From: Actinacidiphila glaucinigra
GTDB taxonomy: Bacteria > Actinomycetota > Actinomycetes > Streptomycetales > Streptomycetaceae
Length of the DNA stretch: 64,000 nucleotides
Direction: 5' to 3'
Assembly: GCF_900188405.1 (NCBI RefSeq)
Contig: NZ_FZOF01000004.1
Span: 372,001 to 436,000 of the forward strand
The translations under genes were made by a program, and so were the position numbers. The notes below the pieces were generated by a model, which saw only the letters and a program-made list of their open reading frames with translations, searched no databases and had not been told where the DNA came from. Position 1 is the first letter of the stretch. The number at the start of each line of letters is the position of its first letter. Positions 1 to 45,248 of the stretch are shown here, one piece after another.

Positions 1-103
1 GGTCGGGGCCGCGCCGGCGCACGTCCTCAACGCTCGCGGTTTACGTCCACATCATTCGGCGCCCGGGTCCGCCGCTCGTCGTTTCCGGGCGCACCCCGCC
101 ACA

Positions 104-142
104 CCCCCTCCGGTCGTATGGGCGCATGACGGCCGGAGGGGG
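104..142. terminator. Strong GC hairpin, probable terminator
   Basis: Perfect 10-bp arms CCCCCTCCGG (104-113) and CCGGAGGGGG (133-142) enclose 19 nt, which contain a further short pairing (CGTATG...CATGACG). There is no clear T tract, which is usual for Streptomyces terminators. It may end a transcript entering from the left of the window. Confidence 0.5.
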
Positions 143-555
143 GTATAGAGCGGTCCGGGGTTACCGCACGCGCCTCACCGAACGCCCACACCATCCGGCT
201 CGATGCCGGTGAGTCGGCCGCGCTACCGGTGCGCGCACCTTCGATCGGCCTGCAGCCGGGGGACCCCCTGGTGAGGGCAGCTTCCAACGGTGCGCGGAGG
301 GACGCACCCCATCACCCCCCACCGGCCGTTGGTCGCTCATCGATACGGAGGGGGCGGGGTCGTAGGGGTGGGCGTTCTGGACGCTGACGTGTATTTGTTG
401 TGCGGCACAGACGGTCACGACAAGTACCGCCCGCCATGCACATAAATATGCGGTACAGAATGCCCACCCCGGAGGCCCCGACCCCGGCCCACCACGAACC
501 GCGCGAGGCCCGCACCAATCGCGCCGGGCAATCGGGAGGGAGGGCGGGGACAGCC

Positions 556-643
556 CGCCGCAGGCGCACACAACCCGCACACAACAACCGGGCAGCCCGG
601 CGCAGCCGCCCGCAGGCGCAAACGACCCGCACACAACAACGGG
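556..643. repeat. Imperfect direct repeat, two copies of about 37 bp
   Basis: Copy 1 (about 556-592) and copy 2 (about 607-643) share the core CGCAGGCGCA followed by ACCCGCACACAACAAC with only a few mismatches. They lie about 51 bp apart, in non-coding DNA downstream of the MFS gene. Function unknown. Confidence 0.6.
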
Positions 644-42040: not shown

Positions 42041-42071
42041 GCGCTCCGTGCGGGGAGGTCGGCGTGATGCC

Positions 42072-42639
42072 GGTGGTTCGGCTGTCCCGCCGTGCCGCGC
42101 CCTTCGGGCGCAAGGATGCCGGCTGCGGGCCTGGAGGGTGGGTCCGGGGCTCGTCGGCGGTGTGCGGGTGGGTTCGTGGTCGGGCTTCAGGCTCCGGAAC
42201 GGATTGCCTTTCCGGTGGTGTGTGCCTCGTTGCCGCCCGCGGGTGGAGATGGTCGCTTCCACGCCTTCGGTGGGTGGTGGGCGCGCCCGCCGTAACCGGC
42301 GTCTGCGGCTGATTCGGGGTGCTGTTGAGGGGTCGGCGGGAGACCGGGCTCTGTTTCGCCGAAACACACGGTGTAACAGAGCCCGATATCGCGGCATTAC
42401 CCGCAGACGCCGGTTACGGCGGGCGCGCCACCCACGAACGGTGGGCGTGGCAACCGGCCATCTCCACCCGCGGACGGCGACGACACCAGCGCCCACGAAC
42501 AACCGGCCCCGTTCCGGAGCCTGAACCCCGGCCGCAAAACCACCCGCACAGCGGGGACCGGGCCCGGACCCACCCTCCAGGCCCGCAGCCCGCATCTTCG
42601 CGCCCGAAGGGCGCGAGACGCCGGGACAGCCGAACCACC
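42072..42639. repeat. Long imperfect inverted repeat (foldback element)
   Basis: Left arm 42072-42308 (237 bp) and right arm 42401-42639 (239 bp) are reverse complements over most of their length. Outer ends read GGTGGTTCGGCTGTCCCG. The innermost 28 bp (42281-42308 versus 42401-42428) are perfect. Each arm contains its own GCGCCC-TTC-GGGCGC hairpin. A nested hairpin sits at the apex (42345-42385). No transposase is present. It lies between convergent genes (stop codons at 42040 and 42678), filling nearly the whole spacer, and has no coding content I can support. Confidence 0.85.
42345..42385. repeat. Nested apical hairpin of the long inverted repeat
   Basis: CGGGCTCTGTT (42345-42355) and AACAGAGCCCG (42375-42385) are perfect 11-bp arms. 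The 19-nt loop itself contains GTTTCG-C-CGAAAC and ACAC-G-GTGT palindromes that overlap it, so several alternative folds are possible. Confidence 0.75.
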
Positions 42640-42677
42640 GCCCGCGCCCGCCCATCGGGGCAACAGCGCGGGTTCGG

Positions 42678-45248
42678 TCAACGCGCCTCCGGCAGAACCA
42701 CCTCGTACTCCAGCCCGTCGCCGCCCGCCGGGAGGCGTTCCACCGCCGATGCGCGGGCCGCGGCGCGGACGTCGTCCTCGGCCAGGGCGAGGAGCGCCAG
42801 CTCCGGGGCCGGGCCGGTGACGACGATCCGGGCGACCTCCGCCCGCATCGACAGCCGCGCCTCCGACTTGGCCCTGCGGACCGCCGTGATCGCGTCGCGG
42901 GCGGTGGCGAGGACGCGCGGGTCGCCGTCGCCGGCGAGGGCCCGCAGCGCGTCCGCGCCCGGCCACTCGGCGCGGTGGACGGAGCCCTCCCGCCACCACG
43001 ACCAGACCTCCTCGGTGACGAAGGGCAGGAAGGGCGCGAACAGCCTCAGGAGGACGGACAGGGCGGTGCCCAGCGTGGCGAGGGCGGAGGTGTCGCCTTC
43101 GTACGCGCGGCCCTTGACCAGCTCGACGTAGTCGTCGCAGAAGTCCCAGAAGAAGGACTCGACCTGTTCCAGGGCGCGGGCGTGGTCGAAGTCCTCCAGG
43201 GCGTCGGTGGCGGCGCGGACGGTCGACGCGAGGGCCGCCAGGAGGGCGCGGTCCAGCGGCGCGGTGACCTCCGGGGCAGCCGCGTCGGGCACCGCGTCGG
43301 GCATCGCGCCGGAAGTGAGCACGAAACGGCCGACGTTGAGGACCTTGATGGCGAGGCGGCGGCCGATCTTCATCTGCCCGGTGTCGAAGGCGGTGTCCGT
43401 ACCGGGCCGGGCGGAGGCAGCCCAGTAGCGGACGGCGTCGGAGCCGTGCTGCTCCAGCAGGTCCCCGGGGGTGACCGCCCTGCCCCGGGACTTGGACATC
43501 TTCTTGCGGTCCGGGTCGAGGATCCAGCCGGAGATCGCCGCGTGCCGCCACGGCAGGACGTCCTGCTCGGCGTGGGCGCGGACGATGCTGCCGAACAGCC
43601 AGGTGCGGATGATCTCGTGGGCCTGCGGCCGCAGGTCCATCGGGAAGACCTTGGCGAACAGCTCGTCGTCGGTGCCCCATCCGGCGGCGATCTGCGGGGT
43701 GAGCGACGAGGTCGCCCAGGTGTCCATGACGTCCGGGTCGCCGGTGAACCCGCCGGGCACGCCCCGCTGCTCCGCGCGGTAGCCGTCGGGGACGTCGGTG
43801 CCCGGGTCGACGGGCAGCGCGGACTCGTCCGGGACGAGCGGCTTGTCGTGGACGGGCTCGCCTGCGTCGTCGAGGGGGTACCAGACGGGGACGGGGACGC
43901 CGAACCAGCGCTGGCGGCTGATCAGCCAGTCGCCGTTGAGCCCTTCGACCCAGCTGTCGTAGCGGACCCGCATCCGCTCGGGGTGCCAGCTCAGCTCGCG
44001 GCCCCGCTCCAGCAGCCGGTCCCGCAGGGCCTCGTCGCGGCCCCCGTTGCGCAGGTACCACTGCCGGGTGGTGACGATCTCCAGCGGCCGGTCGCCCTTC
44101 TCGTAGAACTTGACGGCGTGGACGACCGGTTCGGGCTCGCCGTCCAGCTCTCCGCGCTCGCGGAGCATCCCCACCAGCCGTTCGCGGCCGGTGTACGCGG
44201 TGGCGCCGGCCAGCCGTCCGTACGCCTCGCGGGCCTGCGCCGTGTCCAGGGCGCCCGGCGGCGCGGGCAGGAAGCGCCCGTCGCGGCCGAGGACCGGCCG
44301 GGTGGGCAGCCGGAGTTCGCGCCACCAGGTGACGTCGGTGGTGTCGCCGAAGGTGCAGACCATGGCGATGCCGGTGCCCTTGTCCGGGTCGGCCAGCCGG
44401 TGGGCGTGGACGGGGACCTCGACGCCGAGGACCGGGGTCGTGACGGTCGTGCCGACGAGGTCCCGGTAGCGCTCGTCGTCGGGGTGCGCGACCAGGGCGA
44501 CGCAGGCCGGGAGGAGTTCGGGCCGGGTGGTGGCGACGACGACCCGGCCGCCGCCGGGGCGGTGGAAGGCCAGCCGGTGGTAGGCGCCCGGCCGTTCGCG
44601 GTCCTCCAGCTCCGCCTGGGCGACGGCGGTGCGGAAGGTGGTGTCCCACAGGGTGGGCGCCTCGGCCGAGTAGGCCTCGCCGCGCGCGAGGTTGCGCAGG
44701 AAGGCTCGCTGCGAGGCGGCGCGCGAACGGGCGCCGACGGTCCGGTAGGTCAGCGTCCAGTCGACCGACAGGCCGAGGCGGCGCCACAGTTCCTCGAAGG
44801 CCTTCTCGTCCTCGGCGGTGAGGGCCTCGCACAGCTCGATGAAGTTCCGCCGGGAGACGGGCTGCTGCTGCCTGCCGGGGCGCTCGGGCGGGGTGAGGCC
44901 GGGGTCGTACGGGAGCGAGGGGTCGCAGCGGACCCCGTAGTGGTTCTGGACCCGGCGCTCGGTGGGCAGGCCGTTGTCGTCCCAGCCCATCGGGTAGAAG
45001 ACGGTCTGCCCGCGCATGCGCCGGTAGCGGGCGACGGTGTCGGTGTGGGTGTACGAGAAGACGTGTCCGATGTGGAGCGATCCGCTGGCCGTGGGCGGCG
45101 GGGTGTCGATGGAGAAGATCTCCTCGCGCGGCCTCGACCGGTCGAAGCGGTGTACACCCGACTCGTCCCAGCGCCGCGACCATTTCGCTTCGAGCCCGTC
45201 GAGGGAGGGCTTGCCGGGGACGTCGTGATGACGAGGCGGGAGGTTCAT
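42678..45248 (-). CDS. valS: Valyl-tRNA synthetase, archaeal-type
   Basis: An 856-residue class I aminoacyl-tRNA synthetase charging tRNA-Val. HIGH is at residues 59-62 (GSLHIGHVFSYTH) and KMSKS at about 583-587. The editing (CP1) domain contains the ATTRPELLPACVALVAHPDD block and GTGIAMVCTFGDTTDVTWW. The text around HIGH, with FYPMGWDDNGLPTERRVQ, matches archaeal (and Rickettsia) ValRS rather than the usual bacterial form that has WLPGTDHAGIATQ. No long C-terminal coiled coil is visible. A TAGCAT box ends 8 nt before the ATG, and there is no SD. It may be a second valS in this genome. Confidence 0.93.
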   Translation of the reverse strand: MNLPPRHHDVPGKPSLDGLEAKWSRRWDESGVHRFDRSRPREEIFSIDTPPPTASGSLHIGHVFSYTHTDTVARYRRMRGQTVFYPMGWDDNGLPTERRVQNHYGVRCDPSLPYDPGLTPPERPGRQQQPVSRRNFIELCEALTAEDEKAFEELWRRLGLSVDWTLTYRTVGARSRAASQRAFLRNLARGEAYSAEAPTLWDTTFRTAVAQAELEDRERPGAYHRLAFHRPGGGRVVVATTRPELLPACVALVAHPDDERYRDLVGTTVTTPVLGVEVPVHAHRLADPDKGTGIAMVCTFGDTTDVTWWRELRLPTRPVLGRDGRFLPAPPGALDTAQAREAYGRLAGATAYTGRERLVGMLRERGELDGEPEPVVHAVKFYEKGDRPLEIVTTRQWYLRNGGRDEALRDRLLERGRELSWHPERMRVRYDSWVEGLNGDWLISRQRWFGVPVPVWYPLDDAGEPVHDKPLVPDESALPVDPGTDVPDGYRAEQRGVPGGFTGDPDVMDTWATSSLTPQIAAGWGTDDELFAKVFPMDLRPQAHEIIRTWLFGSIVRAHAEQDVLPWRHAAISGWILDPDRKKMSKSRGRAVTPGDLLEQHGSDAVRYWAASARPGTDTAFDTGQMKIGRRLAIKVLNVGRFVLTSGAMPDAVPDAAAPEVTAPLDRALLAALASTVRAATDALEDFDHARALEQVESFFWDFCDDYVELVKGRAYEGDTSALATLGTALSVLLRLFAPFLPFVTEEVWSWWREGSVHRAEWPGADALRALAGDGDPRVLATARDAITAVRRAKSEARLSMRAEVARIVVTGPAPELALLALAEDDVRAAARASAVERLPAGGDGLEYEVVLPEAR

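What the first reader, a model, noticed from the sequence alone, without database searches (positions are those of the whole stretch)
42072..42639. A 568-bp foldback element fills the spacer between convergent genes
Two ~238-bp arms are reverse complements, with perfect inner 28 bp, a GCGCCC-TTC-GGGCGC hairpin inside each arm and an independent 11-bp hairpin at the apex. There is no transposase and no coding signal. It is far larger than a terminator and nearly fills the space between the citrate-synthase fusion and valS stop codons. It could be a MITE-like or foldback element, a source of double-stranded RNA from both genes, a cruciform/recombination site, or an insulator. I have the impression that related sequences turn up as spurious frames in other Streptomyces genomes, which would make it a dispersed family.
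Basis: partly seen in the sequence, partly recalled or inferred. Interest (0 to 1): 0.82.

Follow-up and report, generated by a model that had tools for sequence, protein, structure and literature searches.

The report
Dispersed giant foldback DNA element
The 570-base mirror-image sequence between two genes is real and is one of about 29 copies of a protein-less mobile repeat that has settled just behind genes, mostly where two genes run towards each other, in this actinobacterium; its sister species lacks nearly all the copies that could be compared.

Summary
Confirmed: window 42071-42640 is a near-complete palindrome far beyond chance (fold z -22 and -30). It belongs to a dispersed family, F1: 28 two-armed copies plus a remnant in this genome, and four single arms carried in composite repeats. 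All 28 two-armed copies have one X-type and one Y-type arm (~275 bp) around an apical hairpin module present 0-2 times, so the polar unit was copied whole. Copies sit a median 35 bp past stop codons; 18 of 29 fill convergent junctions (background 14%, P = 4e-9). In the sister species G025, 9 of 17 comparable junctions have gaps of 2-131 bp and no element. At two sites outgroups lack it too, so F1 was gained there. One older insertion is shared, with its second arm lost in G025. No coding, transposase or clear target duplication was found. Arms are only weakly coupled, without G-U excess, so the palindrome is mainly inherited rather than held by RNA-level selection. Divergent relatives occur in G009 and G045. 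A second, unrelated foldback family uses the same niche. Best reading: a non-autonomous, MITE-like foldback element of unusual size, tolerated behind genes, that may act as a two-way terminator (inferred).

The parts
42071..42640 (.). F1 foldback element (inverted repeat)
   Evidence: homologous copies
42069..42343 (+). left arm, Y type, A-type end
   Evidence: arm HMM; typing
42392..42640 (-). right arm, X type, A-type end
   Evidence: arm HMM; typing
42344..42386 (+). apical hairpin module (one copy here; 0-2 copies in other elements)
42097..42111 (+). outer hairpin GCGCCC-TTC-GGGCGC of the left arm
42600..42614 (-). outer hairpin of the right arm
42280..42308 (.). left copy of the perfect inner 29-bp inverted repeat
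42401..42429 (.). right copy of the perfect inner 29-bp inverted repeat
42041..42070 (.). unconserved spacer between the left stop codon and the arm
42641..42677 (.). unconserved spacer between the arm and the right stop codon
40790..42040 (+). flanking gene: HTH + citrate synthase domain protein
42678..45248 (-). flanking gene: valyl-tRNA-synthetase-like protein

Best explanation
The feature is one copy of a dispersed, non-coding, mobile foldback repeat (F1). SHOWN: about 29 homologous copies; each two-armed copy has one X arm and one Y arm; copies are present or absent at fixed gene junctions between sister species; they lie just behind stop codons, mostly between convergent genes; sequence blocks and an outer hairpin are conserved within the genome and partly in the families of relatives. 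INFERRED: the unit is non-autonomous and is moved by an enzyme encoded elsewhere that reads the conserved outer end (hairpin plus flank), possibly as single-stranded DNA. Insertions survive mainly at gene 3' ends because a giant hairpin there breaks no promoter or operon. Once transcribed from either side, the RNA should fold on itself and probably stops or trims read-through from both genes. The near-perfect palindrome is inherited from the ancestral element, with slight arm-to-arm correction at the DNA level, and decays after insertion.
For: Copies: 63 hits at about 33 places in the own genome, mostly 74-85% identical; a core-motif scan (49 hits) and a B-end scan (17 hits) found no further places. 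Each of 28 two-armed elements has one X and one Y arm by majority of blocks. End types AB/BA 13, AA 6, BB 0. Position: 18/29 convergent against 14% background, P = 4e-9; median 35 bp to 3' ends, 158 bp to 5' ends. Own gap / G025 gap: 652/29, 676/16, 594/4, 727/4, 545/2, 691/50, 548/106, 786/105, 698/131 bp. Outgroups: at the L036 site G018 and G019 have 10-11 bp between the aligned flanks; at the L010 site several other species have at most 90 bp. A shared insertion (L026/L082) keeps the same unusual arm type, with one arm lost in G025. No arm homology at the other G025 junctions, the window's included. G009 and G045 carry longer relatives. Wobble pairs are not enriched within elements.
Against: No transposase, helper element or orphan end was found. 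No significant target-site duplication. The closest copies still differ by about 13%, as much as fourfold sites between the two species, so recent movement is not shown; divergent source copies, fast evolution of the element or losses in G025 must be invoked. The 15-50 bp of unconserved DNA outside the arms is unexplained. Terminator function is untested.
Confidence: 0.72

Rival explanations
1. It is primarily a host-selected bidirectional transcription terminator or insulator of convergent genes, kept for that function; dispersal is secondary.
For: Strong preference for convergent junctions and a median 35 bp from stop codons. Extremely stable fold on both strands. Paired columns diverge 0.10 from consensus against 0.28 for unpaired ones. 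The apical hairpin is 92% paired across 28 copies, with some two-sided changes.
Against: Sister species run the same convergent genes with 2-50 bp between flanks and no element. The one orthologous arm shows no significant constraint below the fourfold rate (11/123 against 67/520, P = 0.28). Wobble pairs are not enriched within elements. It is far larger than a terminator needs to be.
Confidence: 0.3
2. It is a source of double-stranded RNA, cut by RNase III, that regulates the two convergent genes.
For: Either transcript could fold into a stem of about 240 bp. NEMIS elements of Neisseria are described as RNase III substrates (PMC2229807).
Against: No RNA data are available here. Arm pairing is only weakly maintained.
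Confidence: 0.12
3. The elements are ancestral and the sister genome lost them, by deletion of unstable palindromes.
For: The L026/L082 insertion is shared and lost an arm in G025; L040/L083 is decayed in both. Copies are as divergent as fourfold sites between the species.
Against: At L010 and L036 outgroups lack it as well. At L021 the G025 stop codons overlap (CTAG), an unlikely product of deletion.
Confidence: 0.15
4. Assembly artefact (mis-joined inverted copy).
For: Own genome is a draft in 80 contigs.
Against: Copies lie inside contigs of 60-860 kb with different flanks; arms within an element differ by about 22%, which a mis-join would not give; relatives occur in genomes held as one contig (G025, G045).
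Confidence: 0.01

Closest known systems
Bacterial MITE-like intergenic repeats (ERIC/IRU, Correia/NEMIS, RUP, YPAL)
   Same: Non-coding, dispersed, mainly intergenic; transcript predicted to form long stem-loops; filled and empty sites; no own transposase (PMC2229807).
   Different: About 540-790 bp difference between filled and empty sites against ~100-200 bp for those families; nearly the whole unit is palindromic with ~275-bp arms; no clear target duplication; two distinct end types; modular apex.
REP/BIME palindromes, including CGTC-tagged REPs
   Same: Extragenic palindromes predominantly downstream of coding regions; CGTC in front of a small hairpin in this genome (PMC3733652).
   Different: REPs are 20-40 bp, CGTC families with 8-9-bp stems; here the hairpin stem is 6 bp inside a ~275-bp arm, and the CGTC tag is not kept in most G009 arms.
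Foldback (FB-type) transposons of eukaryotes
   Same: Long inverted repeats make up most of the element (own knowledge, not tested).
   Different: No shared sequence is claimed; resemblance of form only.

Membership tests
MITE (non-autonomous DNA transposon) | Dispersed homologous non-coding copies | tested here: met
MITE (non-autonomous DNA transposon) | Filled and empty orthologous sites | tested here: met
MITE (non-autonomous DNA transposon) | Target-site duplication | tested here: inconclusive
   mean longest shared flank word 6.75 against 6.42 shuffled, P = 0.09; an 8-bp candidate CCCGGCGG at L018 and CCTA at L021
MITE (non-autonomous DNA transposon) | Ends shared with an autonomous element | tested here: not met
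   no B-type end outside known sites in this draft genome; A-type ends alone and helpers with other ends were not searched
MITE (non-autonomous DNA transposon) | Small size (~100-200 bp in described bacterial families) | tested here: not met
   filled/empty differences of about 440-720 bp at the nine near-empty sites; size from PMC2229807
REP/BIME | 20-40-bp unit; 8-9-bp stem in CGTC families | tested here: not met
REP/BIME | Associated RAYT tyrosine transposase | not tested
Any RNA family of Rfam 15 | Covariance-model match | tested here: not met
   none at E <= 1
Insertion sequence | Transposase gene inside the unit | tested here: not met
   no gene called inside, also not in the longer G009 and G045 forms

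The most novel reading that the evidence does not exclude
Convergent gene junctions in these actinomycetes are a niche for a class of giant, protein-less foldback elements, with at least two unrelated families (F1, F2) and divergent F1 relatives in other species. They spread by a so far unknown mechanism that reads a hairpin and leaves no regular target duplication, and they double as two-way transcription barriers.
Probability: 0.2. Interest if true: 0.75.

Novelty: new variant of a known kind. Interest (0 to 1): 0.58.

Why it matters
Described bacterial foldback repeats are mostly short. A ~0.6-kb, almost fully palindromic, protein-less unit with about 29 copies in one species and nearly none in a close sister is a tractable case for how long palindromes spread and persist in bacteria, which usually delete them. 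Its place behind stop codons makes it a natural test of whether such hairpins insulate convergent genes. Two unrelated families taking the same niche suggests a general property of these junctions.

Tried and rejected
Rfam: no match. Plasmids, phages and viral contigs: no match. Coding origin: the A/C-rich strand of the arm gives a protein-looking frame in places, but arm lengths vary by indels and no gene is called; not pursued. CGTC-tagged REP: considered because CGTC precedes the outer hairpin; rejected on stem length, size and loss of the tag in most G009 arms. RNA-level maintenance of the long stem: within-element coupling is real but small (joint deviations 100 against 72 +/- 8) and comes with fewer, not more, wobble pairs, which fits arm-to-arm DNA correction better. 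Target duplication: not significant. In-place constraint from the single orthologous arm: conserved columns 0.089 against fourfold 0.129, not significant; variable columns 0.32 exceed it, which might mean conversion between copies or an independent insertion. The valS scan of genome contigs returned almost only other genera and was of little use. Literature searches gave no description of such a family in Streptomyces; only open-licence papers are held, and most queries were narrow.

Full report
OBSERVATION. The palindrome exists as described: 42071-42640, about 76-87% complementary depending on the segment, far more stable than shuffles on both strands. It fills most of the 637 bp between the stop codons of an HTH-citrate synthase gene and a valS-like gene. 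It has no Rfam match.

FAMILY. The left arm hits 63 stretches at about 33 places in the same genome. With an arm profile, 28 places are two-armed foldbacks (the window included), one is a remnant (L040), and four are single arms. The single arms are flanked by a fragment of a galactokinase 3' end, and at least three of them lie inside another repeat, F2. A core motif with up to 3 mismatches (49 hits, none for the reversed control) and a motif of one end (17 hits) add no new places, so the count is probably near complete for this draft.

ANATOMY. Arms are ~275 bp and read G/T-rich from the outside inward. They consist of near-invariant blocks and variable blocks. In the variable blocks there are two arm types, X and Y; all 28 two-armed elements have one of each by majority of blocks, in either orientation, with some recombinant blocks. 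The outermost 20 bp come as type A or B, independent of X/Y: AB/BA 13, AA 6, BB 0, rest undecided. The exchange of ends relative to arms would fit inversion by recombination between arms (inference). The apex holds a 43-nt hairpin module, absent or partial in some elements, single in most, double in several. Its stem is 92% paired over 28 copies, with two pairs that change on both sides; this is modest support for pairing. The window copy is A/A-ended, Y left, X right, one apical hairpin.

ARM COUPLING. Columns where X and Y agree diverge 0.10 from consensus, others 0.28; part of this difference follows from how the columns were chosen. Within-element X-Y identity is 0.779 against 0.768 between elements (P = 0.0002), with 100 joint identical deviations against 72 expected. 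Wobble pairs are not enriched in either strand reading. So the two arms are nearly independent since dispersal; the small coupling looks like DNA-level correction rather than RNA selection. This is inference from one genome.

POSITION. With a simple codon-usage gene caller, 18 of 29 elements lie between convergent genes, 9 tandem, 2 divergent, against 30 convergent among 210 background junctions (P = 4e-9). 45 of 58 element ends face a gene 3' end, median 35 bp; ends facing 5' ends are at a median of 158 bp. Short genes could be missed. Neighbouring proteins are ordinary metabolic, transport and regulatory genes; no transposase was among the families listed.

MOBILITY. G025 is a close relative (aligned flanks about 90-95% identical; fourfold sites of valS differ by 0.129). 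Of 17 junctions compared, 9 have 2-131 bp in G025 where the own genome has 545-786 bp. Seven have 219-1373 bp of other DNA without arm homology, the window site among them (539 bp). One (L026/L082) keeps an arm of the same unusual composition plus the apex, with the second arm lost. A degraded site (L040/L083) has remnants in both. Outgroups at L036 (G018, G019: 10-11 bp between aligned flanks) and L010 (several species, gaps of at most 90 bp) lack the element, so these two are gains in the own lineage. At L021 the stop codons overlap (CTAG) in G025 and are separated in the own genome. Target duplications are not significant. Closest copies are 87% identical, so no very recent jump is seen; burst near the species split, divergent sources, or fast evolution of the element are all open.

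RELATIVES. In 35 genomes of the genus, G009 has about ten related places, including five two-armed elements of ~1.1-1.25 kb whose arms match each other at 83-98.6% and match the own arms at about 65-70%. In 346 genomes of the family only G045 (another genus) adds a clear case: a 1.07-kb element with 339-bp arms at 98.5%. Conserved between families are the outer hairpin with CAAAG and GGGCTGCG behind it and, own to G009, the core around GGTCTCGTTGCCG..AGATGG..CGG. In G045 the outer hairpin stem is GCGGCC/GGCCGC instead of GCGCCC/GGGCGC, a two-sided change. None has a gene inside. Plasmids, phages and viral contigs: none.

SECOND FAMILY. At the junction where the own genome carries F1 element L017, G025 carries an unrelated ~510-bp foldback, F2 (-361 kcal/mol). 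Further copies lie in G025 loci L237, L239 and L243, in own loci L030, L034, L035, and at window 1-591. Three of four G025 copies lie between convergent genes. So the niche, not only the family, seems to matter. F2 was not counted genome-wide.

MECHANISM. Shown: dispersal as a polar unit, presence/absence, 3'-end preference. Inferred: trans-mobilised non-autonomous element whose outer hairpin end is the recognition signal (most conserved between families), kept where it does least harm, with the RNA hairpin likely blocking or trimming read-through from both sides.

COMPARISON. It works like a bacterial MITE (PMC2229807) and shares its location preference with REPs (PMC3733652), but it fails the size criterion of both, the REP stem criterion, and has no demonstrated target duplication or partner. 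I therefore call it MITE-like, not a member of a named family. Literature searches found no prior description, within an open-access library only.

Noticed in passing
window 1-591: Part of a second, unrelated foldback repeat family (F2), about 85% identical to G025 L248:15601-16110 over the aligned pieces and cut by the window start.
   Followed up: partly
L248:15601-16110; L237, L239, L243 (G025): F2 foldback elements; three of four lie between convergent genes, one at the very junction where the own genome has F1.
   Followed up: partly
L028, L030, L034, L035: Composite repeats combining a galactokinase 3' fragment with one F1 arm, at least three of them inside F2 repeats; host DNA has been carried along by dispersed repeats.
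   Followed up: partly
L085:6733-7313: A 580-bp imperfect palindrome (69%) downstream of valS in Pseudonocardia sp. MH-G8, between convergent genes, with no relation to F1 tested.
   Followed up: no
L240:15498-15973 (G025): At the L013 junction G025 has tandem copies of a ~50-bp GGTTGTCCGGGGTTCGGGTGGGTGG-type repeat instead of F1.
   Followed up: no
L168:118-411 and 1411-1524 (G177): Cluster of long inverted repeats in a genome of the same taxonomic family.
   Followed up: no
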